Part shown: positions 32,139 to 51,922 of the stretch, in pieces | Layout: every line of letters begins with the position of its first letter | Numbering within the stretch: the stretch's first letter is position 1 | Source of the DNA: Ruegeria marina | GTDB taxonomy: Bacteria > Pseudomonadota > Alphaproteobacteria > Rhodobacterales > Rhodobacteraceae | NCBI RefSeq assembly: GCF_900101475.1 | Contig: NZ_FMZV01000007.1 | Coordinates: 62,001-126,000, forward strand | Length of the DNA stretch: 64,000 nucleotides | Direction: 5' to 3' | The notes under the pieces: model-generated | What the model was told of the DNA's origin: nothing | The model's database searches: none | Seen by the model: the letters and a program-made list of their open reading frames with translations, nothing else | Made by a program: the position numbers and the translations under genes

Positions 32139-32158
32139 TGGACACTTGTGTCTAGACA
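32139..32158. promoter_or_regulatory. Operator-like site upstream of the 32209 catabolic operon (copy 1)
   Basis: TGGACACTTGTGTCTAGACA contains GACAC-TT-GTGTC and the perfect palindrome TGTCTAGACA, that is, three overlapping TRGACA/TGTCYA half-sites. It ends 50 bases before the ATG at 32209. An 18/20 identical copy precedes the binding protein gene at 45536. The likely ligand is the TetR protein at 36168. Confidence 0.72.
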
Positions 32159-32208
32159 TGAGCGAAAGGCCACGCTAGCCTCTTGCAATGCACGGCAGGG
32201 AGGCTGCA

Positions 32209-34617
32209 ATGAAAAGTCATTATCGGGCAGTGGTCATAGGCGGGGGCGTTGTTGGAGCTTCGGTTCTCTACCACCTGGCGAAATTCGGTTGGACCGATGT
32301 CTGCCTGATCGAACGCAAGATACTGACCGCCGGATCCAGCTGGCATGCCGCAGGCGGTTTCCATGCGCTCAATGCCGACCCGAATATCGCCAGTCTACAG
32401 GCCTACACGATCGACCTGCTATCCGAGATAGAGAAGGAATCCGGTCAATCTGTCGGGATGCACATGACGGGGGGCCTGTCTCTGGCCGGGACACCCGACC
32501 GCTGGGAATGGTTGCAATCGGCCTATCGCACCTTCCAGTCCATCGGGATCGAGGATGTGCGGCTTGTCACCCCCGAAGAAGCCGCCGCGCTCTGCCCGAT
32601 CATGTCGCCGCATGACATTCTGGGCGGCATGTGGGCCGACCGCGAAGGCTATATCGACACCACCGGCACCGTGCATGCCTATGCCGGAGCGGCGAAGAAA
32701 CGCGGGGCCGATATTGTCGAGAACAACCGCGTTCTGGAACTGCACCAGACCGCAGACGGCTGGAAAGTGGTGACGGAAAAGGGCACCGTCACCTGCGAAC
32801 ATGTCGTCAATGCCGCGGGTCTCTGGGCCAAGCAGGTGGGGCGCATGGCCGGGATCGAACTGCCGGTTTCTCCGCTCAACCACCACTACCTTATTTCGGA
32901 CACGATCCCCGAGGTGGCCGCGCTTGACCGCGAATTGCCGCTGGTCGTGGACCTGGAGGGGTTTACCTACATGCGGCAGGATCAGAAGGGTATCCTGCTG
33001 GGCATCTACGAGATCGACCGTGACCACTGGATGATGGACGGGGCCCCTTGGGAATATGGCTTTGAACTTCAGAAGGAGGATCCGGACCGCATCGAACGCG
33101 AGCTTACTCTCGGCTTTCAGCGATACCCGGCACTGCAAGAGGTGGGCGTCAAGACATGGGTCAACGGCGCCTTTACGTTCTCACCCGATGGCAATCCCCT
33201 TATGGGGCCGGTACGCGGCAAGCGCGGCTATTGGTGCGCCTGCGCCGTGATGGCGGGGTTCCTGCAAGGTGGCGGTGTCGGCAAGTCTTTGGCTGAATGG
33301 ATGATCCGTGGCGAGCCCGAGGCGGATGTCTTCGGCATGGACGTGGCGCGTTATGGTGACTTCGCAGGCAACAAGCGGTTCATCAAGGAAACCACGGGAC
33401 AGTTCTACACTCGCCGTTTCGTGATGACCTATCCGAACGAACAGCTACCTGCCGGGCGCCCGTTGAAGATGGCGCCGGCGCATTCCGAGATGACCGCCGC
33501 GGGCTGCCGCTGGGGCGCGAGTTATGGCCTCGAAGTACCGCTGTATTTTGCGCCTTCCGAGGATTTCGCCGAAAAGCCCACGCTGAAACGATCCAACGCC
33601 TTCGACATCGTCGCGGGCGAATGCAAGGCGGTGCGTGGCGGTGTCGGCCTGCTGGACATCTCGGGCTTTTCCCGGTTCGAAGTATCCGGCGACGGGGCCG
33701 AGGCCTGGCTGGACCGGGTCATGGCATCGAAACTGCCCGCACCCGGCCGCGCCCGCCTGGCACCCATGCTGTCCGAAACCGGCAAGCTCAAGGGCGATCT
33801 GACCCTGTTCAACTGGGGCGATGGCACCTGGTGGATCATGGGCAGCTACTACCTTCGGGAATGGCACATGCGCTGGTTCCATGACCATATGGACCCGGAT
33901 GTGATCCTGCGCGACATCTCGGATGCGACCGTCGGCTTCGCTCTTTCCGGGCCGAACGCGCGCAAGGTGATCGAAAGGCTGACCGATGGCCCGGTGGGCA
34001 CGTTGCCCTTCATGGGCTGCGGGTCCTTCGATATCGGGCTCTACCGATGCAAGGTCGGCCGTCTGTCGGTTTCAGGAGAACTGGGATACGAGATTCATTG
34101 CGCGGCAGCCGAGCACATCGGCTTGCGGTGCGCGCTGCTCGAGGCTGGCGCCGATCTTGGCATCTGCGAATACGGGTTCAACGCGCTGCTCAGCCTGCGG
34201 CTGGAAAAATCGTTTGGAATATGGTCGGCGGAGTTTACCCAGGGCTACACGCCCGCCCAGACAGGCATGGATCGCTGGATAGATTGGGACAAGGGCGATT
34301 TCGTGGGCCGTCAGGCAGCCTTGGCCGAACGCGATGGCGCAGGTCCGGCTCAGGTTGTTGCGATGCTGGAGGTCGAGGATGCCGGCGCCGACGCCAGCGG
34401 CTTTGAACCGATTTGGCAAAACGGCCGGCGGGTCGGGTTCGTGACCTCGGGCGGATACGGGCACACGGTAGGCAAGTCGCTGGCGCTGGCCATGGTCGAC
34501 AGGGATATGGCCAGCCCGGGAACGGAATTGTCCGTGCATATCGTGGGCCAGGAACGCAAGGCAAAGGTCATTCCTGTCTCACCCTATGACCCCGAAGGAA
34601 AGGCGATGCGCGCATGA
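32209..34617 (+). CDS. FAD-dependent dimethylglycine dehydrogenase-like oxidoreductase with GcvT domain
   Basis: 802 aa. DAO domain with VIGGGVVG (9-16) and AGSSWHAAGG, in which His46 matches the covalent-FAD histidine of dimethylglycine dehydrogenases. The C-terminal half (about 430-800) is a folate-binding GcvT domain (FEVSGDGAEAWLD, GELGYEIH, YGFNALLSLRLEKSF). It should oxidatively demethylate an N-methyl compound and pass formaldehyde to tetrahydrofolate. GGGAGG precedes the ATG at 32209; an upstream ATG at 32188 has no such site. First gene of the seven-gene operon. Confidence 0.88.
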   Translation: MKSHYRAVVIGGGVVGASVLYHLAKFGWTDVCLIERKILTAGSSWHAAGGFHALNADPNIASLQAYTIDLLSEIEKESGQSVGMHMTGGLSLAGTPDRWEWLQSAYRTFQSIGIEDVRLVTPEEAAALCPIMSPHDILGGMWADREGYIDTTGTVHAYAGAAKKRGADIVENNRVLELHQTADGWKVVTEKGTVTCEHVVNAAGLWAKQVGRMAGIELPVSPLNHHYLISDTIPEVAALDRELPLVVDLEGFTYMRQDQKGILLGIYEIDRDHWMMDGAPWEYGFELQKEDPDRIERELTLGFQRYPALQEVGVKTWVNGAFTFSPDGNPLMGPVRGKRGYWCACAVMAGFLQGGGVGKSLAEWMIRGEPEADVFGMDVARYGDFAGNKRFIKETTGQFYTRRFVMTYPNEQLPAGRPLKMAPAHSEMTAAGCRWGASYGLEVPLYFAPSEDFAEKPTLKRSNAFDIVAGECKAVRGGVGLLDISGFSRFEVSGDGAEAWLDRVMASKLPAPGRARLAPMLSETGKLKGDLTLFNWGDGTWWIMGSYYLREWHMRWFHDHMDPDVILRDISDATVGFALSGPNARKVIERLTDGPVGTLPFMGCGSFDIGLYRCKVGRLSVSGELGYEIHCAAAEHIGLRCALLEAGADLGICEYGFNALLSLRLEKSFGIWSAEFTQGYTPAQTGMDRWIDWDKGDFVGRQAALAERDGAGPAQVVAMLEVEDAGADASGFEPIWQNGRRVGFVTSGGYGHTVGKSLALAMVDRDMASPGTELSVHIVGQERKAKVIPVSPYDPEGKAMRA

Positions 34618-36164
34618 CGGGGAATGAGTCCGAAGCCGCCCTTCAGCGGCGTTCGAAAAACCGACGCTCGGGCACGGCCCCGGTCAGCCAGCGCAAAACC
34701 AACTATCGGCAGTTACGCAACCCGTTCCCCGTCATGTCGGTCTTTTCCGACGACGAAGCGGTGAACATGCACGAGACCGCATTGCGGATGTTGGAAGAGC
34801 TGGGCATGAAGGTGCTTTTGCCCGAGGCCGTACAGATCTATCGCGCCGCTGGCGCGCGCGTGGAAGGGGACATGGTCTATCTCGGGCGCGAGATCGTGCA
34901 GGCCGCGCTGGCCAGTGCGCCCAGGTCCATTCATTGCCGTGGCGGCAATGCGGAACGCGACATCGTGCTGGAGCTTGGCGCGCTCGCCTTCCAGCCCGGG
35001 GCCGGTGCGCCGCATGCCACGGACCTGAAGCGTGGGCGTCGACCGGGCAGTGCGCGGGATTACGAGGAATACACACGGATCGGGCACCATTTCGACGTGT
35101 TCCAGATGATGTCCCCCTCGGTTGAACCGCAGGACGTACCCGTCCATTTGCGGCACTATTTCACCACGCTGACCCAGCTGGACCTGACCGACAAGCTGCC
35201 ATTTCTGTTTGCGCGGGGCACACCGCAGACTCGCGACAACTTCGAAATGCTCAAGATCGCGCGTGGCCTGGACGATGACATGTTTCAGGCTGGCGTGTAT
35301 GCCTTTACCATCATCAACACGAATTCACCGCGAACGCTGGACATCCCCATGGCGCAAGGTCTCATAGACTTTGCCCGACAGGGACAATTGTCCATTGTGA
35401 CACCGTTCACGTTGATGGGAGCCATGGCGCCGATCACGGTGGCCGGCGCAATTACACTGAGCCATGCCGAGTGCCTTGCCGCGATCACACTTGCACAACT
35501 CACCAGACCGGGCGCCCCGGTCTGCTACGGCACATTCACCTCGAATGTCGACATGAAATCCGGCGCGCCCGCTTTCGGCACACCGGAACATTTCCAGGCT
35601 TCGCTGGCAGCCGGGCAGATGGCGCGCCTTCTGGGTCTGCCCTGGCGGTCCGCCGCCGGATCGGCCGCGAATCTCAACGACGTACAAGCGGCGAACGAGA
35701 ACCAATTGGGACTTTGGGGTTGCCTGCTGTCGGGGGCCACCATCATCATCCATTCGGCCGGTTGGCTCGAAGGCGGGCTTTCGGTCAGCTACGAAAAGAT
35801 CGTTACCGATGTCGAGGTGCTCAACATGGTGGCCGAGCTTTGTGCCGGAAGAAAGGCCGGAGTCAACGAGATCGGGTTTGCCAATGCCCTGGCACATGTC
35901 GCGCCATCGGGTCACTTCTTTTCCGCGCCGCAAACCATGGAGCGATATTCGACCGAATTCTATGAACCGATCGTACATGACTATGCCAATTTCGGAACCT
36001 GGACGGAACGTGGTGGAAAAGATGCCACCATCCGTGCAACCGATGTATGGGAAGCCATACTGGCGAGCCCGCGCAAATCCGCCATTTCGTCGGACCGGCT
36101 GGATGCATTGCGGGCATTCATCGACAAACGCACCATGGAGGGTGGCGCCCCTCCGGAAAGCTGA
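34614..36164 (+). CDS. MttB-family methyltransferase, non-pyrrolysine (trimethylamine/betaine methyltransferase-like)
   Basis: 516 aa, full family length, no internal stop. The TIM-barrel core of the MttB family is recognisable (RSIHCRGGNAERDIVLE, QPGAGAPHATDLKRGRRPGSARDYEEYTR, SAAGSAANLNDVQAANENQLGLWGCLLSGATIIIHSAGWLEGGLSVSYEKIV is the conserved C-terminal stretch). Known relatives without pyrrolysine demethylate glycine betaine, proline betaine or carnitine with a corrinoid protein. No corrinoid protein or its activase is in the window. Overlaps the preceding gene (ATGA). Confidence 0.85.
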   Translation: MTGNESEAALQRRSKNRRSGTAPVSQRKTNYRQLRNPFPVMSVFSDDEAVNMHETALRMLEELGMKVLLPEAVQIYRAAGARVEGDMVYLGREIVQAALASAPRSIHCRGGNAERDIVLELGALAFQPGAGAPHATDLKRGRRPGSARDYEEYTRIGHHFDVFQMMSPSVEPQDVPVHLRHYFTTLTQLDLTDKLPFLFARGTPQTRDNFEMLKIARGLDDDMFQAGVYAFTIINTNSPRTLDIPMAQGLIDFARQGQLSIVTPFTLMGAMAPITVAGAITLSHAECLAAITLAQLTRPGAPVCYGTFTSNVDMKSGAPAFGTPEHFQASLAAGQMARLLGLPWRSAAGSAANLNDVQAANENQLGLWGCLLSGATIIIHSAGWLEGGLSVSYEKIVTDVEVLNMVAELCAGRKAGVNEIGFANALAHVAPSGHFFSAPQTMERYSTEFYEPIVHDYANFGTWTERGGKDATIRATDVWEAILASPRKSAISSDRLDALRAFIDKRTMEGGAPPES

Positions 36165-36167
36165 CAT

Positions 36168-36839
36168 ATGGCGACAGAACGCACGGCAAATCAGATCAAG
36201 GATGGCATCGACCGGGAGGATTTGCCCGGCTATGTCAAGGTCACGCGTGATGACTGGCTTCGCGTCGCCATGGACCTGCTGGTGTCCGATGGTGTCTCCG
36301 AGGTCAAGGTGCTGACCATCGGCAACCGTCTCGGGGTTTCGAGGTCATCGTTTTATTGGTATTTCAAGAGCCACAAAGACCTGCTCGACCAGCTTCTGCA
36401 TGAATGGGAGCGGACCAACACCGGGATCCTGGTCCGAGCCGCCCAGACACCGGCGCCAACCATAACTGCGGCGTTGAACAACTTTTTCCGATGCATTGTG
36501 GATCCCAACGGGTTCAATCATCCGTTGGACTTTGCCGTTCGCGAATGGGCGCGCCGGGATGGCGGGGTACGTCGGGTTATCGACAGATCCGACGAAATAC
36601 GCACCTCGGCGTTGATGAAAATGTTCGAAGCACACGGTTACGACCCTTCCGAGGCCGACATTCGCGCCCGTGTTCTCTATTATCAGCAGATCGGGTATTA
36701 TGCGCTGGATCTGAAGGAGACCCTTGAAGAGCGGCTTTCGCGCGCGGCGCTGTATCTTTACGCGTTCACAGGCGTTCATCCTTTGCCGGAAGAGGTTGAG
36801 GATTTCAAGGTCTTTGCCCGGCAGGTTGCTTCCCAATGA
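36168..36839 (+). CDS. TetR-family regulator inside the demethylation operon
   Basis: 223 aa. HTH at about 45-70 (VLTIGNRLGVSRSSFYWYFKSHKDLL) followed by an alpha-helical ligand domain. It lies three bases after the MttB-like gene and its stop overlaps the soxB start. Being the only DNA-binding protein in the operon, it is the best candidate to bind the sites at 32139-32158 and 45464-45483 and to autoregulate. Confidence 0.85.
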   Translation: MATERTANQIKDGIDREDLPGYVKVTRDDWLRVAMDLLVSDGVSEVKVLTIGNRLGVSRSSFYWYFKSHKDLLDQLLHEWERTNTGILVRAAQTPAPTITAALNNFFRCIVDPNGFNHPLDFAVREWARRDGGVRRVIDRSDEIRTSALMKMFEAHGYDPSEADIRARVLYYQQIGYYALDLKETLEERLSRAALYLYAFTGVHPLPEEVEDFKVFARQVASQ

Positions 36840-38086
36840 AACGGTATTCGGCACTTTCCCTTTTCCGCGAAGGCTTGCGCGCTCATCGGGGCTGGCAGCC
36901 CGCATGGACAAAGGCGCGTCCGAAACCCGCCTATGACGCGGTTGTGGTGGGCGGCGGCGGTCATGGGCTGGCCACGGCATACTACCTGGCCAGGATCCAT
37001 GGGATCAATCGGGTCGCCGTGCTGGAAAAGGGTTGGATCGGCGGCGGCAACACGGGGCGAAACACGACCGTCTGCCGGTCGAATTATTTCTACCCCGAAA
37101 GCGTAGCCCTCTATGACCTTGCCCTGCGCCTCTACGAAGGGCTGAGCCGAGAATTGAACTACAACATCATGCTGTCGCAACGTGGCATGCTGATCGCCGC
37201 CCACACGCCGGCGCAGATGGAGATTTGCAACCGCATCGCAAACGCGATGCAACTCAACAATGTCGACGGCAAACTGATGGGGCCGGAGGAAGCGGCCGCA
37301 CGTGTACCGTTGATCAACACCGGCCCGGATGCGCGCTACAAGTTGATGGGCGGCATCTGGCAAGGACGGGCCGGGACCGCACGACATGACGCCGTAGCCT
37401 GGGCATATGCCCGTGCTGCCAGCGCCCTCGGCGTCGATATCATCGAAGGCTGCGAGGTGGCGGGTATAGATGTCCAAAACGGTGCGGTCGCCGGTGTCGA
37501 GACGACGTTTGGCCCGATCCGCACCGAAAGGCTGGGGCTGGCGGCGGCTGGTGCCACCCCCGGACTGACCGCGCATGTGGGTGTGGACCTGCCGATCCAT
37601 GACTACGCGCTTCAGGCCTTCGTTTCGGAACCCGTCAAACCCTGTCTGGACACGGTTCTGCTGTATCTCGGCACTGGCACCTATGTCAGCCAGTCCGACA
37701 AGGGCGAACTGGTGTTTGGCGGCGGGTTGGACCGTGTGCCCACGCATGGACAGCGCGGCAACCTGCCGGTGCAGGAGGCCGTAACGGCAGGCTTGCTCGA
37801 AATGTTCCCCGCCTTCGGCCAATTGAGACTCCTGCGCCAGTGGGCAGGCGTTGTGGATGTCGTGCCGGACAGTTCGCCTCTGATCGGGCCTGTCGGTCCG
37901 TCCGGACTGCATATCAACTGCGGCTGGGGGACCGGCGGGTTCAAGGCAATTCCAGCCGGCGGCTGGCTCCTCTCGCATCTCATGGCGAAAGGCGAACATC
38001 ACGAGATCAGCCGCCCATTCGATCTGGACCGTTTCGCGCGCGGCCGCCTGATCGACGAGGCAGCGGGTTCCGGGATCGCGCATTAG
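36836..38086 (+). CDS. soxB: Sarcosine oxidase beta subunit
   Basis: 416 aa. FAD motif VVVGGGGHGLATAYYLARIHG (about 33) and NTGRNTTVCRSNYFYPES. The covalent-FMN histidine motif is ARHDAVAW (about 182-189). It is the catalytic DAO-type subunit of the heterotetrameric enzyme that oxidises sarcosine to glycine, with formaldehyde going to tetrahydrofolate. soxD, soxA and soxG follow in order. Ends in TAG. These genes are the sarcosine oxidase sox set, not sulfur oxidation. Confidence 0.95.
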   Translation: MKRYSALSLFREGLRAHRGWQPAWTKARPKPAYDAVVVGGGGHGLATAYYLARIHGINRVAVLEKGWIGGGNTGRNTTVCRSNYFYPESVALYDLALRLYEGLSRELNYNIMLSQRGMLIAAHTPAQMEICNRIANAMQLNNVDGKLMGPEEAAARVPLINTGPDARYKLMGGIWQGRAGTARHDAVAWAYARAASALGVDIIEGCEVAGIDVQNGAVAGVETTFGPIRTERLGLAAAGATPGLTAHVGVDLPIHDYALQAFVSEPVKPCLDTVLLYLGTGTYVSQSDKGELVFGGGLDRVPTHGQRGNLPVQEAVTAGLLEMFPAFGQLRLLRQWAGVVDVVPDSSPLIGPVGPSGLHINCGWGTGGFKAIPAGGWLLSHLMAKGEHHEISRPFDLDRFARGRLIDEAAGSGIAH

Positions 38087-38096
38087 GAGGTTCAAG

Positions 38097-38363
38097 ATGC
38101 AACATTTTCCCTGCCCCTTCTGCGGTTTGCGTAACGAGACAGAGTTTCATTTCGCGGTCGAGGCCGGTCACAGCCGCCCCGAACCCGCCGAACGCGTGTC
38201 AGACGCCGAATGGGCGGCCTATCTTTATGCAAACAAGTCGCCCAAGGGTGAGTCCCGGGAAGTCTGGTTGCACCTCAGTTGCGGCGAGTACTTCATCCTG
38301 TCGCGCGATACCGTCACCCGCGCGGTTCTTGGATCGGTGACATTACCGGGGGTGACCCGATGA
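38097..38363 (+). CDS. soxD: Sarcosine oxidase delta subunit
   Basis: 88 aa. Zinc-site residues Cys6 and Cys9 (CPFCG), His59 and Cys62 (HLSCGEYF) are all present, as in structurally known SoxD. An AGGAGG site lies before the ATG. Overlaps soxA by four bases. Confidence 0.95.
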   Translation: MQHFPCPFCGLRNETEFHFAVEAGHSRPEPAERVSDAEWAAYLYANKSPKGESREVWLHLSCGEYFILSRDTVTRAVLGSVTLPGVTR

Positions 38364-41185
38364 CTGGCTGGCGGCACCAGACCCTGGGTAGAAACATAGA
38401 TCGGTCGAAACCCTTGCGGTTTTCCTTTGACGGACAAGACGTCGACGGTTTTGCAGGCGACACCCTGGCCTCGGCGCTGATCGCATCCGGGCAACGTATC
38501 CTGGGTCGCAGTTTCAAGTACCACCGGCCCCGCGGACTATGGGGGATGGGTGCGGAAGAACCCAATGCCGTTCTCGACGTGCGGCATGGATCGGAACATT
38601 GGCCCAACACCAGGGCAACGCTGGCAAGGGCGCAGGACGGGATGACCGTGACATCGGTCAATGCATGGCCAACGGCGCGCGGCGACATGTTCCGGCTGAT
38701 GGACCTTGCGCATCGCTTTCTGCCGGCAGGGTTCTACTACAAGACGTTCATGGCCCTTCCCTGGCGGTTCTATGAACCGATGATCCGCCGCATGGCCGGG
38801 CTTGGGCGGGTCGATCCCTCTTGCGCGCCGCGGGCCGATGTGGCTCAGGTGTCGGCGGAATGCGACGTGCTGGTGATCGGAGCCGGCCCTGCCGGGATTG
38901 CTGCGGCCAAAGCGGCGGCGGAAACCGGCAAGAGGGTCTGGCTGGTCGAAGAGTCAAGCCAGCTTGGCGGCACGTTGCGCTGGCGCGGCGGTGAAATCGG
39001 CGGTACCCCCTGGCAGGAATTCGCAGCTGCAACGCGCGAAATCGTGTTGGCGGCCGGCGGGCGCATCCTGACCGAAACGACGCTCTGGGGCGCTTTCGAT
39101 CATGGCAGTTTCGCCGCGTGGGAGCGTGGGGTCCCTGAAAGGCATTGGCGTATCCGATCGACCAGGACGATCCTGGCTTCGGGCGGAATCGAACGGCCCG
39201 TCTGGTTTGCGAACAATGACCTGCCGGGCGTGATGTCGGCCGAAGCCGCGTTTCACCATTTAATCCTCTACGGTGCCGCACCCGGGCGACGGGTTCTTTT
39301 GGCGATGGCCAGCGACCGCGGCGTTCCGGTCGCCCGTGCACTGACCGACGCCGGTGTCGAGGTGACCCTGGTGGATGCCAGAAAGACCCCGGTGGATTGC
39401 GGCGTGCCCAGGGTGACGGGCCGCATCGAGGCAGCCCACGGACGGCGGGGCGTCGACAGCGCCACGGTCAATGGAAAACGCATTGCCTGTGATACGATCC
39501 TTTGCGCCGGCGGCACCACCCCGACCCTGCATATCTGGTGTCAGGCGGGCGGCAAGCTGGATTGGGACGCCTCCCGCGATATGCTGGTGCCGCGCCCAGG
39601 TACTGCGCCGATGACCGTGGTCGGCGCGGCGGCCGGCGTACTCGATCTGGAAACCGCCGTTGAGGATGGGTGGGCCGCCGGATCGGAGATCGAGGCGACG
39701 AACCGCCCTGCCCCGAAATCGCCCCCGGACCACGTTTTCCGTCCCGATCCATCTCTGCCCGGACGGCAATGGATCGACCTGCAAAACGATGTCACGCTCA
39801 AGGATGTAACGCTGGCCGCGCGCGAGGGCTTTTCCTCGGTCGAGCACCTCAAGCGCTACACGACCCTGGGCATGGCAACCGATCAGGGCCGCACATCGAA
39901 TTTTGCGGGCCTTACCGCCATGGCCGCGGTAACCGACCGCACGATCCCGGCCACGGGAACAACCACCTATCGTCCCCCCTTCCAGCCTGTTCCGCTGCGT
40001 GCAATAGCCGGACCGGCCCGCGGCGCACTTTACCATGCGCCAAAGCGCTTGACACTGGAGGACATGCATCGTGCTGCCGGGGCGCGGTTCCGCGAATATG
40101 GCGGATGGCTGCGTCCTGCAACCTATGGCGCGGGCGATGAAACGACGGTGGCTCGGATCGAGGCACAGACAGCCCGCCAGTCTGTCGGGGTTTTCGACGC
40201 CTCTCCGTTGGGCAAGCTGGACGTGATCGGGCCGGGTGCTGCGGACCTGCTGGATTTTACCGGTTATGTCCGCATGTCGACGCTGAAACCGGGCCGTGCC
40301 CGATATGGTTTCATGCTGTCCGAGACCGGCATCGTCTATGACGACGGGGTCGTCCTTCGGCTGGCGGAGGATCATTTTTTGGTTTCCACGTCATCCAGCC
40401 ATGTCGAAGGAGTCCGCTATCGCCTGGAAGATGCACGGCAGGACAGGATTGGACGCGGCCGGGTGTTCATTCACGACATTACGCAAGGCTTCACAACACT
40501 TACGGTAACAGGACCCAAGGCCCGTGAAATGTGCCGGAAGGCGGGGATCGAACTGCCGGACCTGCCGCACATGGGCGTCGGCCAGACCAGCTTTGAAGGT
40601 TCGCCAATGCGCGTGGCCCGGATCAGCTTTACCGGCGACCTGAGCTATGAACTCAGCGTCCCGGCAAATCTGGCGCATGCTCTGCATGACCGACTGGATA
40701 CCGCCCTGCCGGAGGTCGGTGGATGCTGGATAGGTCTTGAAGCCGTGCTGATCCTGCGAGCCGAAAAAGGATTTATTCTCATCGGCAAGGACACCGATGG
40801 CGCGACGATGCCCCATGATCTGGGCTGGGGAGGACCTCGGACCAGACGCGAGGACGAGTATATTGGCAAACGTTCGCTGTTCACTCCGGAAGCTCAAGGC
40901 GACAAGCGCCGGCAACTGGTTGGCCTGCGTGTGCGTGACGGCGATGCCGTCATCGCAACCGGTTCGCACCTGATCGAGGATCAGGGCGCGCGCCGGTCCT
41001 TGGGCTTTGTCACGTCAAGCTGTTTCAGCCCCACGCTGAAGCGTCCGATTGCCCTTGCCTTGCTGGAAAACGGACGCGACAGGATCGGCGGTTCCGTGCA
41101 GGTGTTCAACGACGGAGAGGTACGCTCAGCCGAAGTCACCATGGCTTGCGCCTTTGATCCCAAGGGGGAGTATCTCGATGGATGA
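38360..41185 (+). CDS. soxA: Sarcosine oxidase alpha subunit
   Basis: 941 aa. N-terminal ferredoxin-like fold (SFKYHRPRGLWGMGAEEPNA), NAD-binding motif VIGAGPAGIAAAKAA near 172, then a C-terminal GcvT-like folate domain from about 570 (GVFDASPLGKLDVIGPGA, GDLSYELSVP, EAVLILRAEKGFILIGKDTDG). The frame is open upstream to 38279 but the ATG at 38360 overlaps the soxD stop and fits the family start. Confidence 0.94.
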   Translation: MTGWRHQTLGRNIDRSKPLRFSFDGQDVDGFAGDTLASALIASGQRILGRSFKYHRPRGLWGMGAEEPNAVLDVRHGSEHWPNTRATLARAQDGMTVTSVNAWPTARGDMFRLMDLAHRFLPAGFYYKTFMALPWRFYEPMIRRMAGLGRVDPSCAPRADVAQVSAECDVLVIGAGPAGIAAAKAAAETGKRVWLVEESSQLGGTLRWRGGEIGGTPWQEFAAATREIVLAAGGRILTETTLWGAFDHGSFAAWERGVPERHWRIRSTRTILASGGIERPVWFANNDLPGVMSAEAAFHHLILYGAAPGRRVLLAMASDRGVPVARALTDAGVEVTLVDARKTPVDCGVPRVTGRIEAAHGRRGVDSATVNGKRIACDTILCAGGTTPTLHIWCQAGGKLDWDASRDMLVPRPGTAPMTVVGAAAGVLDLETAVEDGWAAGSEIEATNRPAPKSPPDHVFRPDPSLPGRQWIDLQNDVTLKDVTLAAREGFSSVEHLKRYTTLGMATDQGRTSNFAGLTAMAAVTDRTIPATGTTTYRPPFQPVPLRAIAGPARGALYHAPKRLTLEDMHRAAGARFREYGGWLRPATYGAGDETTVARIEAQTARQSVGVFDASPLGKLDVIGPGAADLLDFTGYVRMSTLKPGRARYGFMLSETGIVYDDGVVLRLAEDHFLVSTSSSHVEGVRYRLEDARQDRIGRGRVFIHDITQGFTTLTVTGPKAREMCRKAGIELPDLPHMGVGQTSFEGSPMRVARISFTGDLSYELSVPANLAHALHDRLDTALPEVGGCWIGLEAVLILRAEKGFILIGKDTDGATMPHDLGWGGPRTRREDEYIGKRSLFTPEAQGDKRRQLVGLRVRDGDAVIATGSHLIEDQGARRSLGFVTSSCFSPTLKRPIALALLENGRDRIGGSVQVFNDGEVRSAEVTMACAFDPKGEYLDG

Positions 41186-41711
41186 GCGTCTTTGGACAGA
41201 CCGGGCACTGGCCGATGGAGAAGCCATTGCGGCCGCAGGATGCCGGATTTCGCGTTCCGGGACCGGTCATCAAACTCTTGTTTCCGGTGACCTGACGGCG
41301 GCAATTTCCATGTTGGCGCCGGATGCCCCGTTGCTCGGGTTTGCCGAGGTGTCCGATACACCCGAGCAAGCGATCCGGATAGCACGCGATCACGCCCTGT
41401 TGGTCACGTCAAATCCCGTTCAAGAGGACCCGGGCTGGCACAGCGCCGGCTTTGCGCTGAGCGATGCGGGCAACCGGTTCGCCTGTCTCGACCTTGCCGG
41501 ACACGGTGCAATGGACGTTTTGGCGCATGGGTTGGCCTCTGCTGCTCCGGTCGGTTCCCCGTCAGCCGCCCTGTATTTCGTCGGGTTGCCTGTGCTGGTA
41601 ACCGGAACGAGAACGGGCCTGAAGCTCTGGGTTGACCAGGCCCACCTGACTTATCTCACGGGTTTCATTGCCCGTATTGGTCGGAACGCGGGCCCTGCGT
41701 TCGACAGCTGA
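41178..41711 (+). CDS. soxG: Sarcosine oxidase gamma subunit
   Basis: 177 aa. The least conserved subunit, recognised by position after soxA, length and the C-terminal LWVDQAHLTYLTGFIARIG-like ending. The ATG overlaps the end of soxA. Last gene of the operon; it is followed after 30 bases by the convergent damaged LysR gene. The usual downstream folate genes (purU, folD, glyA) are absent. Confidence 0.85.
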   Translation: MDERLWTDRALADGEAIAAAGCRISRSGTGHQTLVSGDLTAAISMLAPDAPLLGFAEVSDTPEQAIRIARDHALLVTSNPVQEDPGWHSAGFALSDAGNRFACLDLAGHGAMDVLAHGLASAAPVGSPSAALYFVGLPVLVTGTRTGLKLWVDQAHLTYLTGFIARIGRNAGPAFDS

Positions 41712-41740
41712 GGGCGGTGGCGATATGGCGGAACCGCATG

Positions 41741-42718
41741 TCATGCCCCATGACCTGCCCAGAATCGGCGAAAGAAGGCGGCATGTTCCTCGGCCTCGTG
41801 CCGAAGCCAATCCGTAAACAGCGTTACAGGTGGCTGGCGACCCGCGCCTTCGGGATAGACCAGAAAATACGCATCCGGGGACGGCAGCACAGTATCGAAC
41901 GGGCATACCAGTGTGCCGCTTTGCAGGTGTGACCGGGTCGTCACTTCGTCGCCTATGGTTACGCCATCTCCGCGCGCGGCGGCGACAAGACAAAGGACAG
42001 TCCTGTTGTAGATCCGACCGGAACCCGGATCCATGACACGATCGCCGGTCGCTTCCTGAAATGCGCGCCACCAGAACCGTGTCTGGTCATGGATCAGGTG
42101 CCGTTCCGGGATGTCGGACAGCCGGGGTGGGCGGCCAAGAGACTAGAAATAGCTGGGCGCGGCGACCGGGAACACCCGGTTTGTCATCAGCGCCTCGAAC
42201 CGGCAGCCGTTCCAGCCCCCGCGCCCCCAGATCACGGCACAGTCCCATTCGCCCTCGGGCGGGTTGTTCATTCCGATATTCGCTGTGATCGAAATCCGGA
42301 TCGTCGGATGGAGCGCCTCGAACTCGGGCAGCCGGGGAAACAGCCATTGTTCCAGGAAATCGGCATCCCCGAACAACCTGATCTGGTCTGGTGCGGGAAC
42401 GTCCATCTCGCGCAAACCGGTTTCGATCTGCGCGAATGCGGATCCGGCCAGATCCGCCACACGCTGCCCGAACGACGTGATTTCGATCCTCCGGTGATAT
42501 CGACGGAACAGAGCTTGCCCAAACTCGACTTCAAGCGCCGAAATCTGTTTGCTTACAGCCGATTGGGTCACACCCAAGGCATCAGCCGCCAGGGTAAAGC
42601 TGTTATTCCGCGCGACGGCGACGAGAACCCTCAAGCCATTCAGATTGGGAAGGCGATTTGTCGTGAGTTTTTCGAGTTCTATGCCGGATTTATTCGAATT
42701 TGACTGACTTTTTCGCAT
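41741..42718 (-). pseudogene. LysR-family regulator interrupted by an in-frame TAG
   Basis: Reads as a 325-codon LysR protein with one stop, TAG at codon 192 (42143-42145). Before it: HTH NSFTLAADALGVTQSAVSKQISALE and effector-domain strand PVAAPSYF. After it, in the same frame: SLGRPPRLSDIPERHLIHDQ, then FWWRAFQEATG and DAYFLVYPEG, the normal GcvA-like continuation. No frameshift is involved, so a single base substitution or a sequencing error explains it. Divergent from the aminotransferase at 42755, its probable former target. Confidence 0.85.
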
Positions 42719-42754
42719 CCGTAAAGCTGAACCAGATTTATTGGGCAGTCTCAT

Positions 42755-44038
42755 ATGGCGCAGCTCTATCCATTCAATGATCCGGTGACAGTTGAGTCCG
42801 AGCCGCCGGTTCGCTTTGAACGCGGCGATGGCATCCGGGTTTCCGATACGCAAGGAAACACCTATATCGACGCGGTTTCCGCGCTTTGGTGCTCGAATCT
42901 GGGGTTCTCTCCGCAACGACTGACCCGCGCCGCGGCCGAGCAGATGCAGCGGTTGGCCTATTACCATTCCTTCATGGGACGTACCCCTTCGCAGTCCGAC
43001 AGGCTTGCCGACCGGCTGGTCGCAAGACTTCCCGGCATGGCGCGGGTGTTCTATGGCACTTCGGGATCCGAGGCGGTCGAAACAACCGCCAAATTCGTGC
43101 GCTACTACTGGTCGGCCAGGGGAAATCCCGGTCGGCACAGGATCATCGCGCGTGAAGGCGCTTATCATGGCTCCGAGCAGATGAGTGCGGCGCTCACCGG
43201 ACTGGGCTATTGTCACGACGGGTTCAACTTGCCGCTGTCCGCGGTTCCGCGTGCCGGTCGCCCACATTATCTGCGCGATGCCGAACCCGGAGAAAGCGAA
43301 GCCGCATTTTCCAGGCGCCGGGCGCGCGAGTTGGACGACCTGATCCAACGGGAAGACCCTGGCACCATCGGCGCATTCATCGGCGAGCCTGCCATGGGTG
43401 CGGGCGGGGTCATTCTGCCACCGGACGGGTATTGGGACGCGGTCCAGGACGTGCTGTCGAAACACGGTATCCTGCTGATCGCGGACGAAATCATATCCGG
43501 TTTCGGACGAACCGGCGAATGGTTCGCCTGCGAAACCTACGGCATTCGGCCGCACATGATGACCCTGGCCAAACAGTTGACCGCATCGGTCTTCCCGATG
43601 TCCGCCGTCGCGATGACGGCCGAGGTCTATGAAACGATGAAGAGCCTCGCGCATGAGAAAGGGATTTTCGGCCATGGTGTCACCTATGGCGGGCACCCCG
43701 TGGGCGCTGCCGTGGCGCTGGAATGCCTCGATATCTACGAAGAGATGAACTTGCCGCTGCTTGTGGGCCGGCTTGGGAAAGAAATCGAAAAAGGCTTCGA
43801 ACCGTTCCGTGACCGTCCCGAGGTGCTGAAGTGCCGTCGCGTTGGCATGCTCGCCGCCGTGGAGTTCGAGACAGAAGCATAGGCAAGGGCTGTTGGAGAC
43901 GAGGCCGTTCGACGGGGCGTGTTCTTCCGGATAATTGGCCCGGTCGTTGCGATCGCGCCGCCCTACATCTGCACCGAGGCGGACATAGCAAAGATCATGG
44001 CGGTTCTCGCGGATGCCACAGACGCCGCAATGCCCTGA
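42755..44038 (+). pseudogene. Class III aminotransferase interrupted by an in-frame TAG
   Basis: 427 codons with TAG at codon 376 (43880-43882). The first 375 residues form a class III (omega) aminotransferase: GTSGSEAVETTAK, the PLP Asp in LLIADEIISGFGRTGEW and PLP Lys273 in TLAKQLTAS. After the TAG the same frame continues with ARAVGDEAVRRGVFFR, then AIAPPYICTEADIAKIM and a TGA, which is the expected C-terminal domain. The truncated protein would lack the last helix and strand region of the small domain. Substrates of this family include omega-amino acids and diamines. Confidence 0.85.
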
Positions 44039-45456
44039 AACTTTGTTATCTCTCCGCGACAGAGGTACTTGCGAAATTCCGCAGCCGGGAGATTTCTCCC
44101 GTGGATCTTGCAAGGGCTATCATCGACCGGGCAGAAGCCGTGGAACCGGTCATCGGCGCTTTCACCTACAGGTATTTCGAAACCGCACTCGACGCGGCCC
44201 GAGACGCCGAAGCACGCTATTCGGGACAGGGCGGTGAATCCCGCGCTCTTGACGGTCTGTTCGTAGCGATCAAGGATGCAGGTCACGTTGCGGGCCAACC
44301 AACCTCGGCAGGTTCTCTCCTGACGAATGTTGACCCACAGCCGGTGACATCGCCGATCAATACTCGGATCCTCGAGGCAGGCGGTATCGTACATGCGCGC
44401 AGCGCCACCCCTGAATTCTCCTGTTCATCCGTCACCTGGTCACGCCGCTGGGGTGTGACGCGCAATCCCTGGAACATCAAAATGACACCGGGCGGGTCTT
44501 CGGGTGGTGCTGCCGCCTCGCTGGCGGCGGGAACGGCAACGCTGGCCACGGGGTCCGACATCGCGGGGTCAATCCGCATTCCTGCCGCATGCTGCGGCAT
44601 TGTCGGATACAAGCCGCCGCGCGGGCGCAACCCGGTGGACCCTCCATTCAACCTGGACTTCTATTGCCACACAGGACCGATGGCCCGGACGGTGGCAGAC
44701 ACACTGCTGTTTCAGAATGTATTATGCGGGCTGCATCCGGCGGACCCGACAGGCCTGCCACGCCATCGGATTTCTGCCGAACCGGATGCCCAAGGGCTGC
44801 GAATAGCCATGTCGCGAAACCTCGGGTTCTACGCCGTGGATGCCGAAGTCGAGCGGGCGATGGAAGATGCAGCACGCAGGTTTCGCGACCTTGGCGCAAT
44901 CGTCGAGGAAATCGACCTGCCGTGGGGCTGGGACGTGATCGACGCCGCCATGGCTCACCTGCATACAATTTTCGGAACTTCGATCGCGCCGGAGAATTCA
45001 ACGGATTGGGAGTTGATGAGTCCCTATGCCCGCGATTTCGCAGCCGCTGGTCTAAGGATCACACCAAGAGAATTTCTCGCTGCGTTGACCCGCGCTGGCC
45101 GCATGGGTGTCGAACTGAATGCCGCGATGGCAGGATACGACCTGCTGATCTGTCCCACCAACGCCTTGCCCTCTGTCCCGGCCGATCTGGATGTTTCAAA
45201 CGGCACGGTCGAGATCGGGGGAACCAGCGTGCCTGCATTGCTAGGCTGGGTCATGACCGTTCCCTTCAACATGCTGTCAACCCGGCCAGCCATCTCAATC
45301 CCTTTCGGACAAGCTGCGAATGGAGTGCCGATCGGGATGCAGATCGTCGGGCGCTCCTATGATGATGACACGGTTTTCGCTGCGGCCTTGGCTTTCGAAT
45401 CTGCTGCGGCACGACCCGCGTGGCCTGACCCATCAATTCAGTTGACGCAGGCATGA
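44035..45456 (+). CDS. Amidase signature enzyme with no ordinary start codon
   Basis: About 473 aa if read from CTG 44035. Amidase signature motifs are intact: catalytic Lys in FVAIKDAGHVAGQPTSAGS, cis-Ser and nucleophile Ser in TPGGSSGGAAASLA and SDIAGSIRIPAA. The family-typical N-terminus CYLSATEVLAKFRSREISPVDL is present, but no ATG, GTG or TTG lies in frame just before it. The first GTG (44101) would remove about 22 conserved residues. A CTG start or an N-terminal lesion are both possible. The 4-base overlap with the aminotransferase TGA suggests former coupling. Confidence 0.7.
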   Translation: MKLCYLSATEVLAKFRSREISPVDLARAIIDRAEAVEPVIGAFTYRYFETALDAARDAEARYSGQGGESRALDGLFVAIKDAGHVAGQPTSAGSLLTNVDPQPVTSPINTRILEAGGIVHARSATPEFSCSSVTWSRRWGVTRNPWNIKMTPGGSSGGAAASLAAGTATLATGSDIAGSIRIPAACCGIVGYKPPRGRNPVDPPFNLDFYCHTGPMARTVADTLLFQNVLCGLHPADPTGLPRHRISAEPDAQGLRIAMSRNLGFYAVDAEVERAMEDAARRFRDLGAIVEEIDLPWGWDVIDAAMAHLHTIFGTSIAPENSTDWELMSPYARDFAAAGLRITPREFLAALTRAGRMGVELNAAMAGYDLLICPTNALPSVPADLDVSNGTVEIGGTSVPALLGWVMTVPFNMLSTRPAISIPFGQAANGVPIGMQIVGRSYDDDTVFAAALAFESAAARPAWPDPSIQLTQA

Positions 45457-45463
45457 GAAGATG

Positions 45464-45483
45464 TGGACACTCATGTCTAGACA
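45464..45483. promoter_or_regulatory. Operator-like site upstream of the orphan binding protein (copy 2)
   Basis: TGGACACTCATGTCTAGACA matches copy 1 (32139-32158) at 18 of 20 bases, keeps the perfect palindrome TGTCTAGACA and ends 52 bases before the ATG at 45536. Begins 8 bases after the amidase stop, marking a new promoter. Confidence 0.72.
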
Positions 45484-45535
45484 GTTCTGTCCACGAATCG
45501 CTTTGAAAGCGCGAAACTTCGTCAGGGAGAGGAAA

Positions 45536-47161
45536 ATGACAGAGAAAAGACTGCATCCGGCCGCAGAGATGTACGCTGCCGAATACCACGCAGGAGAGTT
45601 GAGCCGCCGAGAATTCCTGAGCCGCGCCACCATGCTTGGGGTTTCGGCTACGGCTGCCTATGCGCTGATCGGCGCCATTGCGCCGTCAAAGGTGAATGCC
45701 GCGGCCGCCAAAGGCGGCACTCTGCGTGTCAATATGGAAACCAAGGCGATGAAAGACCCTCGCCTTTGGGACTGGACGGAATATGCCAACTTCTGCCGGG
45801 GGTGGCTCGACTATATGACGCAATTCAACCGTGACGGCAGCGTCACCGGAAGCCTAATCGAGTCATGGGAGGCGAACGACGACGCCACGCAATACACGCT
45901 GAACCTGCGTCGGGGCGTCAAGTGGAACAACGGTGATGACTTCACGGCGGTTGACGTGCTGCACAATTTCGACCGCTGGGCCGATGGTACCGTCGAAGGT
46001 AACTCGATGGCCTCGCGCGTCGCGGCTTTGCAGGACCCGGACACGAAAAAGCTGCGCGAAGGATCCGTTGTCGCCATCGACGATCACACGGTGCAACTCA
46101 ACCTGAATACATCCGACATCAGCGTCATGGCCGCGCTGTCGGATTACCCCGCCGCGGTCGTACACCGCAGCTACGCTGGAGAAGACCCCGTTGCCAGCCC
46201 GATCGGCACCGGCGTCTATCTGCCGGAAAGCTACGAGGTCGGTGTCAAGGCGGTTCTCGTTCGCAACCCCGACCACAACTATTGGCGCGAGGGTGGCTGG
46301 CTGGACCGGATCGAGTTCATCGACCTCGGCACGGACCAGGCGTCGCTTGCGGCCGCCGCAGAAGGTGACGAGATCGATCTGACCTACCGGACGGATGGCG
46401 ATTTCGTGGCGCTCTTTGACGGGATCGGCTGGCAATCGAGCGAGGTTGTCACCGCCAATACCCTGGCTGTCCGGTTCAACCAGCTTTCCGCCCCTTATGA
46501 CAACCGCGAGGTTCGGCGGGGCATTCAGCTTATGGTAGACAACGCAAAAGTGCTCGAACTGGGCATCGGCGGTCTGGGACTGCCCGGTGAAAACCACCAT
46601 GTCTGCCCCATTCATCCCGAATATGCGAAATTGCCGCCCCTGGAAGTCGATCCCGCAAAAGGCGCAGAGATGATTGCGGCTGCCGGGCATTCCGATACCG
46701 AAATCGAGTTGATTTCGCTCGATACCGGCTGGCAGCGGAATACCTGTGACGCGGTCGCCTCACAGATCAGAGATGCCGGAATGAACGTCAAGCGCACGAT
46801 CCTGCCCGGCGCCACCTTCTGGAACGACTGGACCAAATACCCGTTTTCGGCAACCGAATGGGGTCCGAGACCGCTGGGCATCCAGATCATGTCCCTTGCC
46901 TACAAGAGTGGCGCGGCGTGGAACGAAAGCGCATTCTCGAACGCCGAATTCGACAGCCTGCTGGAACAGGGTCTTTCCGTCGCTGATGCAGACGCGCGTC
47001 GGGAGATCATGGCCAAGATGGAAAAGATCATGCAGGACGAAGGCGTGCTGATCCAGTCCTACTGGCGTTCCGTGTTCAACCACTCGAACGGCAAGTTCGC
47101 AAATGTCGATGTGCATCCGTTCTACGAACTGGCCCTGCACGACATTCATCTGAAAGCCTGA
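45536..47161 (+). CDS. Tat-exported ABC solute-binding protein, family 5 (oligopeptide/dipeptide type), without transporter
   Basis: 541 aa. Twin-arginine signal LSRREFLSRATMLGVSA (Arg24-Arg25), then the family 5 core ([55 protein letters not shown]). No permease or ATPase of this class is in the window. A close paralogue lies at 52857. The strong GGGAGAGG site fixes the start. Because of the shared operator it should be expressed together with the 32209 operon, so its ligand is probably the operon's methylated amine. Confidence 0.88.
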   Translation: MTEKRLHPAAEMYAAEYHAGELSRREFLSRATMLGVSATAAYALIGAIAPSKVNAAAAKGGTLRVNMETKAMKDPRLWDWTEYANFCRGWLDYMTQFNRDGSVTGSLIESWEANDDATQYTLNLRRGVKWNNGDDFTAVDVLHNFDRWADGTVEGNSMASRVAALQDPDTKKLREGSVVAIDDHTVQLNLNTSDISVMAALSDYPAAVVHRSYAGEDPVASPIGTGVYLPESYEVGVKAVLVRNPDHNYWREGGWLDRIEFIDLGTDQASLAAAAEGDEIDLTYRTDGDFVALFDGIGWQSSEVVTANTLAVRFNQLSAPYDNREVRRGIQLMVDNAKVLELGIGGLGLPGENHHVCPIHPEYAKLPPLEVDPAKGAEMIAAAGHSDTEIELISLDTGWQRNTCDAVASQIRDAGMNVKRTILPGATFWNDWTKYPFSATEWGPRPLGIQIMSLAYKSGAAWNESAFSNAEFDSLLEQGLSVADADARREIMAKMEKIMQDEGVLIQSYWRSVFNHSNGKFANVDVHPFYELALHDIHLKA

Positions 47162-47791: not shown

Positions 47792-48490
47792 ATGGCATCG
47801 CGTGTGCTTTCGGTGCGCCATGGCGACGAGCCTCTGGATGATCGTGCAACGGCCTGGCTTGGACAGGCCGGTTACGATGTACAAACTCTTCGTCCGTTTC
47901 GTGGCGACCTGCTGGGCGAACCCGACGAGGGTATTGCCGCGACCATCATCTACGGCGGCCCCTTTAACGTGTACGAGACGGACCGCCACCCGTTCCTGAA
48001 CGAGGAGTACCGCTGGATCGACGCCTGCCTGACTGCGGGCATCCCGGTCCTCGGCATTTGCCAGGGCTGCCAGATGATCGCGCACCACCTCGGCGCCTGG
48101 GCCGGCCCGCGCGATGTCGAGATCTTCGAATTCGGCTATTACCCGATCACGCCCACGCCCGAGGCCGCCGGCTTCCTCGACGCCCCCCTGGTCGTGACCC
48201 AGGCGCATTACCACACTTTCGACCTGCCGCAGGGCGCGGTCCGGTTGGCCGGCAATTCCAACTACGAGAACCAGGCCTTCCGCTACGGCGACCGCACCTT
48301 TGGACTCCAGTTCCACGCCGAGGTGACCAAGACCGGTTTCCGCCGCTGGCAGGAGCAGAAGCGCGACGCCTACACCCGCCCCGGCGTGCAGACCAGACAG
48401 GAACAGGACCGCCTGATGGAGCAGCACGATGCCGCGCAAGAGGCGTGGTTTCACGGCTTTCTGGCAAGTTTCATGGGGGACGTCCGATGA
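47792..48490 (+). CDS. Class I glutamine amidotransferase-like protein
   Basis: 232 aa. Nucleophile Cys90 in VLGICQGCQMIAHHLG; catalytic His175 and Glu177 in GLQFHAEVTK. Stand-alone GATases of this kind can be gamma-glutamyl hydrolases or amide transfer partners. The ATG at 47792 has a GGGGGA site 6-11 bases upstream; the ATG at 47780 is in frame but precedes that site. First gene of a tightly overlapping operon to 52804. Confidence 0.84.
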   Translation: MASRVLSVRHGDEPLDDRATAWLGQAGYDVQTLRPFRGDLLGEPDEGIAATIIYGGPFNVYETDRHPFLNEEYRWIDACLTAGIPVLGICQGCQMIAHHLGAWAGPRDVEIFEFGYYPITPTPEAAGFLDAPLVVTQAHYHTFDLPQGAVRLAGNSNYENQAFRYGDRTFGLQFHAEVTKTGFRRWQEQKRDAYTRPGVQTRQEQDRLMEQHDAAQEAWFHGFLASFMGDVR

Positions 48491-51918: not shown

Positions 51919-51922
51919 CCAG

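What the first reader, a model, noticed from the sequence alone, without database searches (positions are those of the whole stretch)
32139..45483. Two promoters 13 kb apart share a 20-base operator, suggesting a demethylation operon and an orphan binding protein form one regulon
TGGACACTTGTGTCTAGACA (32139-32158) and TGGACACTCATGTCTAGACA (45464-45483) agree at 18/20. They keep the same overlapping half-sites and end 50 and 52 bases before the ATG of the dimethylglycine dehydrogenase-like gene and of the Tat-exported family 5 binding protein. I noticed no other copy. The TetR gene at 36168 sits within the first operon. This links an unassigned binding protein to a methylated-amine pathway and predicts the ligand class.
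Basis: partly seen in the sequence, partly recalled or inferred. Interest (0 to 1): 0.82.

Follow-up and report, generated by a model that had tools for sequence, protein, structure and literature searches.

The report
TetR-linked demethylation and uptake regulon
A short DNA switch found in front of both a methyl-removing enzyme operon and a separate nutrient-binding protein recurs in many related bacteria, mostly together with one particular TetR-type regulator, so uptake and breakdown of a methylated amine are probably controlled together.

Summary
The 20-mers are where stated. An 18/20 match alone means little (89 such pairs in the window); comparison decides it. The core is a 16-bp dyad, TRGACA-N4-TGTCYA. 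It lies upstream of the dimethylglycine-dehydrogenase-like gene in 104 of 111 distinct promoters linked to an orthologue of this TetR gene, but in 2 of 21 from genomes without a full-length orthologue. All 105 perfect dyads in 2.6 Mb of TetR-bearing loci precede a demethylation gene, a family-5 binding-protein gene or a TRAP transporter. Close orthologues of the binding protein carry it in 5 of 5 loci, distant homologues in 0 of 25. In one relative, operon and binding protein diverge around a shared perfect dyad; others have a TRAP transporter under the same operator. The genome also has the operator at a paralogous operon and a complete ABC transporter. Against: 11 further TetR loci stand apart from the dehydrogenase, 9 of them with no dyad. 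In promoter 1 the "overlapping half-site" is probably a -35 box, suggesting repression. A betaine-type ligand is inferred; TetR binding and induction are untested.

The parts
32139..32154 (+). operator dyad TGGACA-N4-TGTCTA of the dehydrogenase operon
   Evidence: conserved across relatives
32153..32158 (+). probable -35 element TAGACA, overlapping the 3' half of the operator
   Evidence: 17 bp upstream of a conserved -10-like element in 102 aligned promoter contexts; inference
32176..32181 (+). probable -10 element TAGCCT
   Evidence: columns +38 to +43 most often TAGC(G/C)T
32209..34617 (+). dimethylglycine dehydrogenase-like flavoprotein (DAO + FAO_M + GCV_T domains)
   Evidence: Pfam; best solved relative human mitochondrial-type dimethylglycine dehydrogenase 5l46, E 7e-145 over residues 5-795 of the frame begun at 32188
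34614..36164 (+). MttB-superfamily methyltransferase without pyrrolysine (MtgB-like)
   Evidence: PF06253 E 7e-190; solved relatives 2qne, 9yce (glycine betaine methyltransferase), 4yyc; NCBIfam trimeth_pyl far below its cut-off
36168..36839 (+). TetR-family regulator, proposed to bind the operator
   Evidence: PF00440; AlphaFold model mean pLDDT 88.9 with TetR-fold matches; co-occurrence with operator
36836..38086 (+). SoxB-like beta subunit
   Evidence: TIGR01373 over cut-off
38097..38363 (+). small SoxD-like ORF (88 aa), named by position and cysteine-containing start only
38360..41185 (+). SoxA-like alpha subunit
   Evidence: TIGR01372 E 2e-300 but below its cut-off; Pfam
41178..41711 (+). 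SoxG-like gamma subunit, named by position
   Evidence: no Pfam hit for the longer frame tried; orthologous stretches of 39-55% in related operons
45464..45479 (+). first operator dyad of the binding-protein promoter
45478..45493 (+). second, overlapping operator dyad TAGACA-N4-TGTCCA
45536..47161 (+). SBP1, family-5 solute-binding protein with a twin-arginine-type start (SRREFL, by eye), no permease gene recognised beside it
   Evidence: PF00496; neighbours

Best explanation
The two sites are operators of one TetR-family regulon that couples uptake of a methylated amine to its stepwise demethylation. Shown by comparison: the dyad TRGACA-N4-TGTCYA is a conserved promoter element of the dehydrogenase/MttB operon that usually carries the tetR gene, of the orphan binding protein SBP1, and in relatives of a TRAP transporter. 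Inferred: a dimer of the operon's own TetR protein (and probably its paralogue on contig 8) binds the dyad. In promoter 1 the dyad overlaps the probable -35 box (TAGACA, 17 bp, TAGCCT), so binding should block RNA polymerase. A methylated substrate or intermediate taken up with the help of SBP1 releases the repressor, raising both uptake and the enzymes, and, as tetR is inside the operon, more repressor for a quick reset. The enzyme set (MtgB-like corrinoid methyltransferase, human-like dimethylglycine dehydrogenase, SoxBDAG) fits removal of three N-methyl groups from a betaine. SBP1 has no permease beside it and may dock on the ABC transporter on contig 17 that carries the same operator (speculative).
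For: Operator (at least 11/12) within 300 bp of the ATG in 104 of 111 distinct TetR-linked dehydrogenase promoters (102 within 150 bp) against 2 of 21 in genomes without a full-length TetR orthologue at E 1e-50 (Fisher p 3e-15; 3e-14 at 150 bp). Where TetR lies elsewhere in the genome, 6 of 7. 105 of 105 perfect dyads in 2,597,928 bases of TetR-bearing loci lie upstream of the dehydrogenase (93), a family-5 binding protein (13, some shared), MttB-first operons (4) or TRAP DctP genes (5). SBP1 orthologues of 73% identity or more: 5 of 5 with a site, against 0 of 25 more distant homologues. In G031 (L057) the operon and an 84% partial SBP1 orthologue diverge from one intergenic region with a perfect dyad and an 11/12 dyad 33 bp away. 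TRAP DctP orthologues: 7 of 7 found in 195 loci have a site 78-92 bp upstream of the matched start, scores 12 (five), 11 and 10. Own-genus transporter SBP3 (93% identical orthologues): a perfect dyad 230-232 bp upstream in 5 of 5 genomes with differing spacers. Conserved -35/-10 register. Enzyme relatives; separate corrinoid protein on contig 17.
Against: No binding or expression data. 7 of 111 distinct TetR-linked promoters lack a site of 11/12 (L160, L177, L178, L225, L271, L279, L291). G212 has an 11/12 site but no TetR match at E 1e-5. SBP3 carries a site in only 3 of 30 orthologues across the family, so that membership is genus-level. Operator variants do not covary with the recognition helix, which is nearly invariant, so TetR assignment rests on co-occurrence. 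Promoter 2 has no clear -10 at 17 bp (by eye). Perfect dyads in ten whole genomes (15) do not outnumber the reversed control (27).
Confidence: 0.8

Rival explanations
1. The sites bind a GntR-family (HutC-type) regulator, whose operators can also read TGTCTAGACA (recalled), and the TetR gene is a passenger.
For: A paper on the pneumococcal GntR regulator BguR holds the string TGTCTAGACA (search listing only). Other regulator-like genes, named by eye, lie near: AraC-type upstream of SBP3, LysR-type upstream of SBP1.
Against: TGTCTAGACA is not the conserved unit: 22 of 101 sites are TGGACA/TGGACA pairs without it. Operator presence tracks the TetR gene, linked or not. I did not scan the relatives for GntR genes.
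Confidence: 0.07
2. TetR controls only the dehydrogenase operon; the sites at SBP1 and the other transporters are bound by a different regulator of similar specificity, or by the contig-8 paralogue only.
For: The genome has two TetR paralogues 55% identical and a third at 38%. The four genus relatives examined have the contig-8 type operon and a perfect dyad at SBP3.
Against: The recognition helix is nearly invariant in 60 relatives. In G031 one intergenic region serves both the operon and SBP1. This is cross-talk inside one regulon rather than a different story.
Confidence: 0.1
3. TetR acts as an activator at these dyads rather than a repressor.
For: A few TetR-family proteins activate (recalled); the distance from dyad start to start codon varies from 165 to 29 bp.
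Against: In the modal arrangement the dyad overlaps the probable -35 box with a 17-bp spacer to a conserved -10, the usual place of a repressor; the nearest sites, starting 29 bp before the start codon, suit repression better.
Confidence: 0.08
4. Chance similarity of two 20-mers.
For: 89 same-strand pairs reach 18/20 in the window.
Against: The comparative results above; of 359 permuted palindromic half-sites, three one-swap neighbours of the real one reach 66, 54 and 54 of 111 promoters and the next best 3 (which used a limit of 171 bp from the ATG).
Confidence: 0.01

Closest known systems
Local TetR-family repressor regulons (the family of TetR, AcrR, QacR, BetI)
   Same: TetR_N domain and TetR fold; palindromic operator overlapping the promoter; regulator usually encoded with its targets
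   Different: No curated NCBIfam model reaches its cut-off; half-sites, targets and operon content differ from BetI (choline to betaine), whose details I recall and did not compare by sequence
Roseobacter MtgBCD glycine betaine demethylation (Ruegeria pomeroyi, PNAS 2025, PMC12478193; passages seen)
   Same: pfam06253 methyltransferase with separately encoded corrinoid protein; later steps by predicted dimethylglycine and sarcosine demethylation; the paper reports up to seven pfam06253 ORFs per genome and suggests further methylated substrates
   Different: The passages seen name a BCCT-type transporter (OpuD) for betaine and give no operator; here uptake is by family-5 ABC or TRAP proteins and control by a TetR-linked operator
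bhmt-dgcA-soxBDAG betaine degradation in Rhodobacteraceae (PMC7574528, passages seen)
   Same: dimethylglycine demethylase plus soxBDAG in one pathway
   Different: First step there is assigned to Bhmt; no such gene was recognised in this operon
Family-5 (Dpp/Opp/nickel type) solute-binding proteins
   Same: PF00496; best solved relative 8upi
   Different: All NCBIfam matches far below cut-off; predicted ligand is a methylated amine rather than a peptide, opine or metal

Membership tests
TetR family of transcriptional regulators | N-terminal TetR_N helix-turn-helix domain | tested here: met
   PF00440 E 8e-11, 41.9 bits against cut-off 24, residues 31-75
TetR family of transcriptional regulators | all-helical fold like solved TetR proteins | tested here: met
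   model mean pLDDT 88.9; Foldseek matches include FasR, SmcR and QacR, probability 1.00, best E 1.7e-4, modest TM-scores
TetR family of transcriptional regulators | binds a palindromic operator and is released by a ligand | not testable with these tools
   palindrome and co-occurrence shown; binding and ligand untested
Dimethylglycine dehydrogenase family | DAO flavin domain, FAO central domain, GCV_T folate domains along the whole length | tested here: met
   PF01266, PF16350, PF01571, PF08669; aligns with the human enzyme over residues 5-795
Dimethylglycine dehydrogenase family | oxidises dimethylglycine | not testable with these tools
   activity assay needed; the genome gave 42 first-look candidates for this query, so paralogue specificity is open
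MttB superfamily, MtgB-type | MTTB domain without an in-frame pyrrolysine stop | tested here: met
   PF06253 over 499 residues of an uninterrupted frame
MttB superfamily, MtgB-type | corrinoid partner protein available | tested here: met
   213-aa ORF with B12-binding_2 on contig 17 of the same genome; not in this operon; that it is the partner is inferred
MttB superfamily, MtgB-type | glycine betaine as substrate | not testable with these tools
   three solved relatives score alike
Family-5 ABC solute-binding protein | SBP_bac_5 domain | tested here: met
   PF00496 E 1e-55
Family-5 ABC solute-binding protein | cognate permease and ATPase genes adjacent | tested here: not met
   no permease recognised among neighbouring ORFs; a complete related system is on contig 17
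HutC-type GntR operator | GTCTAGAC-type palindrome as the conserved unit (recalled) | tested here: not met
   the conserved unit is TRGACA-N4-TGTCYA; 22 of 101 sites lack the inner palindrome through having TGTCCA

The most novel reading that the evidence does not exclude
A widespread, so far unnamed TetR regulon of Rhodobacteraceae and relatives controls a corrinoid-dependent demethylation route for a betaine other than, or besides, glycine betaine, and its operator marks the cognate importer even when that importer is swapped between unrelated families (family-5 ABC binding protein or DctP-type TRAP). SBP1 would then be a family-5 binding protein that captures a quaternary or N-methylated amine, and the operator could be used to assign substrates to unassigned MttB paralogues and transporters of marine bacteria.
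Probability: 0.5. Interest if true: 0.65.

Novelty: new member of a known kind. Interest (0 to 1): 0.52.

Why it matters
Bacteria of this family carry several MttB-like methyltransferases, many dimethylglycine-dehydrogenase-like flavoproteins and many binding proteins of unknown substrate. A DNA signature that ties one such operon to its importer across genera, with transporter families exchanged under the same operator, turns a vague set of paralogues into a testable uptake-and-demethylation system and offers a sensor protein for finding the substrate.

Tried and rejected
Chance: the 18/20 match alone was weak, so I moved to comparative tests. The 16-mer with one mismatch is not distinctive genome-wide (22 places against 52 in the reversed control), and perfect dyads in ten genomes do not outnumber the reversed control (15 against 27); only position makes them meaningful. 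More distant TetR homologues (35-44%, 11 loci L062-L072) lie among other genes, some near distant MttB homologues of 30-42%, and have no exact dyad. Covariation of operator variants with TetR residues gave only what looks like a phylogenetic signal. The homarine idea could not be followed: the paper on that pathway is not held. Paper searches for such a regulon listed none; only open-licence papers are held, so this is no proof of absence in print.

Mended on re-check: measured distances from a start 21 bp upstream of the true ATG, so the dyad starts 72 bp (not 51) before it in the median; counts were redone. One search read minus-strand loci unflipped and is replaced. I lowered confidence from 0.83 to 0.80 for the TetR loci without a dehydrogenase or dyad.

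Rows set aside: in the 21-promoter control I left out L202 (G111) and L206 (G146), both with sites (11 and 12), because a TetR fragment lies beside the gene or at the contig end. I kept L218 (G272), though a TetR C-terminal fragment exists elsewhere in that fragmented assembly. The TetR-linked set of 123 (124 with the window) was reduced to 111 by dropping identical 100-bp ends. TetR neighbourhoods were fetched for 61 of the 63 matches; the dehydrogenase regions of the other two genomes (G125, G223) came. One search kept the best 80 of 535 relatives. SBP tests used the best 30 loci of each search. Some named loci are the same contigs as unnamed ones, so raw counts contain duplicates.
Full report
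What was claimed and what is there. In the window the degenerate pattern with up to 3 mismatches occurs three times (the two sites and the overlapping minus-strand copy at the second) against 0.01 expected in shuffles; but the pattern was derived from the sites. A fairer test of bare similarity, counting all 20-mer pairs on one strand that agree at 18 or more positions, gives 89. So the match alone proves little.

Anatomy. Site 1 holds one dyad, TGGACA-N4-TGTCTA (32139-32154). Site 2 holds two dyads that overlap by two bases, TGGACA-N4-TGTCTA (45464-45479) and TAGACA-N4-TGTCCA (45478-45493), together a 30-base palindrome with 22 of 30 positions symmetric. Both sites contain the perfect 10-base palindrome TGTCTAGACA.

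The rest of the genome. The 20-mer is exact only at these two places. The next site, with two mismatches, is on contig 8; its dyad starts about 70 bp before the ATG of a paralogous dehydrogenase gene (74% identical), which is followed by an MttB paralogue and a TetR paralogue of 53-55% identity. A perfect 16-bp dyad on contig 17 lies 230 bp upstream of a third family-5 binding protein followed by two permease genes and a double ATPase gene (profiles for the first permease and the ATPase).

Footprinting the dehydrogenase operon. Of 295 family genomes, 294 genera, 62 have a TetR match at E 1e-50. I took neighbourhoods of 61 of those 63 matches and of three same-genus relatives, and the best 80 of 535 named GTDB relatives. 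Of 123 TetR-linked dehydrogenase promoters long enough to score, 116 have a dyad of at least 11 of 12 defined positions within 300 bp of the ATG; after removal of identical ends it is 104 of 111, or 102 within 150 bp. The seven without are L160, L177, L178, L225, L271, L279 and L291. Of 359 permuted palindromic half-sites only three one-swap neighbours of the real one score high (66, 54, 54 of 111); the next best reaches 3. Dehydrogenase orthologues from genomes without a TetR match at E 1e-50 have it in 2 of 21 promoters (G212, G272), Fisher p 3e-15; genomes with TetR elsewhere have it in 6 of 7. A later, more permissive search found TetR fragments in G272 and in the set-aside G111 and G146, and none in G212.

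Results that do not fit neatly. Of the 63 TetR neighbourhoods L053-L061 and L128-L181, 13 have no dehydrogenase gene. Two are MttB-first operons with a perfect dyad (L061, L139). Of the other 11, nine have no dyad of 11/12 and two have one (L166, far from TetR; L173, beside it). Five of those 11 genomes have the dehydrogenase elsewhere, four of them with the dyad; six have no dehydrogenase match at E 1e-250. TetR orthologues may serve other targets there.

The orphan binding protein. In the family-wide search the top 30 loci were examined: SBP1 orthologues at 73% identity or more (5 loci) all have a site of 11/12 or better, the nearest starting 52-65 bp upstream of the matched start, and all five genomes have the TetR; none of the 25 homologues at 66% or less has one. 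G031 adds a partial orthologue (84%) at a contig end, divergent from the operon, with a perfect dyad and an 11/12 dyad between them. G213, Nioella and Rhodosalinus loci have divergent SBP1 and operon with one dyad (12/12, or 11/12 in Rhodosalinus) near each start. G024 has an MttB-first operon and SBP1 convergent, each with its own perfect dyad. Rearrangements that keep the dyad are the strongest evidence that SBP1 is a member.

Other transporters. In Paracoccus and Roseovarius loci a perfect dyad 78-81 bp upstream precedes a DctP-type TRAP binding protein; in the two loci read, two ORFs that look by eye like the TRAP membrane subunits follow. Of 195 loci searched, seven hold this DctP; all seven have a site, scores 12 in five, 11 in L295 and a symmetric 10 in L266. 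In the window's genus a perfect dyad stands 230-232 bp upstream of the contig-17 type binding protein in 5 of 5 genomes (orthologues 93% identical), with differing spacers, and is the only perfect dyad of the genome in three of the four relatives. Outside the genus only 1 of 28 examined orthologues has a site (11/12, G320), so this membership is local. In all, 105 perfect dyads in 2,597,928 bases of TetR-bearing loci fall upstream of the dehydrogenase (93), a family-5 binding protein (13, some shared), an MttB-first operon (4) or the TRAP gene (5); none is elsewhere (duplicates of one contig included).

Promoter logic. Aligned on the dyad, 102 promoter contexts show a second conserved element, CTAGC(G/C)T at +37 to +43, 17 bp after YAGACA at +15 to +20. 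This fits a -35 box formed by the 3' half of the operator and a -10 box. In the window it reads TAGACA (32153-32158), 17 bp, TAGCCT (32176-32181). So the TGTCTAGACA palindrome at site 1 is best read as operator half plus -35 box. The median dyad start is 72 bp before the start codon, range 165 to 29. At site 2 the second dyad lies where that spacer would be, and no clear -10 is seen at 17 bp (by eye). Repression is the natural reading, not proven.

What the operon does. The flavoprotein matches human dimethylglycine dehydrogenase along its whole length. The second gene is an MttB-superfamily protein without pyrrolysine whose solved relatives include a glycine betaine methyltransferase. The sox genes follow. 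A separate corrinoid protein exists on contig 17. In Ruegeria pomeroyi pfam06253 proteins are proposed to work with separately encoded MtgC and MtgD in glycine betaine demethylation, and the authors suggest that further paralogues serve other methylated compounds (PMC12478193, passages). The window genome is probably of that genus: the contig of same-genus relative G001 has the length and, within 3 bases, the TetR position of a Ruegeria sp. XHP0148 contig (inference). A betaine-type substrate is the best guess; the exact one is open.

Which regulator. The TetR gene is inside the operon, its recognition helix is nearly invariant in 60 sequences, and operator presence tracks it. The AlphaFold model (mean pLDDT 88.9) has a TetR fold; no match is close enough to suggest the ligand. 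A GntR-type rival remains possible on motif resemblance alone (listing only).

Verdict. The finding is right in substance, its weak statistical basis has been replaced by strong comparative evidence, and the regulon is larger than proposed. It is a new instance of a familiar kind of control, with an unusual and useful exchange of transporter families.

Noticed in passing
window 42143-42145, minus-strand gene about 42.7-41.7 kb: A LysR-type regulator frame (by eye) upstream of the aminotransferase is interrupted by an in-frame stop; it looks decayed.
   Followed up: partly
window 42755-43882 and 43831-45456: A class-III aminotransferase frame ends early (375 aa, family profiles about 460) and the amidase frame overlaps its end; the gene may be disrupted.
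   Followed up: no
window 52857-54521: A second family-5 binding protein with a twin-arginine-type start, 51% identical to SBP1, with no operator upstream and no permease gene recognised beside it.
   Followed up: partly
window 48487-52804: A run of creatininase-, amidohydrolase-, FAD_binding_4- and (by eye) TauD-like genes between the two binding proteins, possibly another small-amine pathway.
   Followed up: no
window 26545-29339: A PLP aminotransferase next to a 5-guanidino-2-oxopentanoate decarboxylase-like gene, suggestive of arginine breakdown.
   Followed up: no
L202 (G111), beside the dehydrogenase gene: Only a C-terminal TetR remnant was found next to the dehydrogenase, yet an 11/12 operator persists.
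   Followed up: partly
L266, 81 bp upstream of DctP: The TRAP operator reads TGGGCA-N4-TGCCCA: both halves changed in step, as expected of a dimer-binding site.
   Followed up: no
L255 position 2068: An 11/12 dyad 0.4 kb after the TetR gene of Roseovarius amoyensis with no recognised target gene.
   Followed up: partly
L151, L157, L166, L175, L179, L180: TetR orthologues of 45-56% identity in genomes without a dehydrogenase match at E 1e-250 and mostly without a dyad nearby; their targets are unknown.
   Followed up: no
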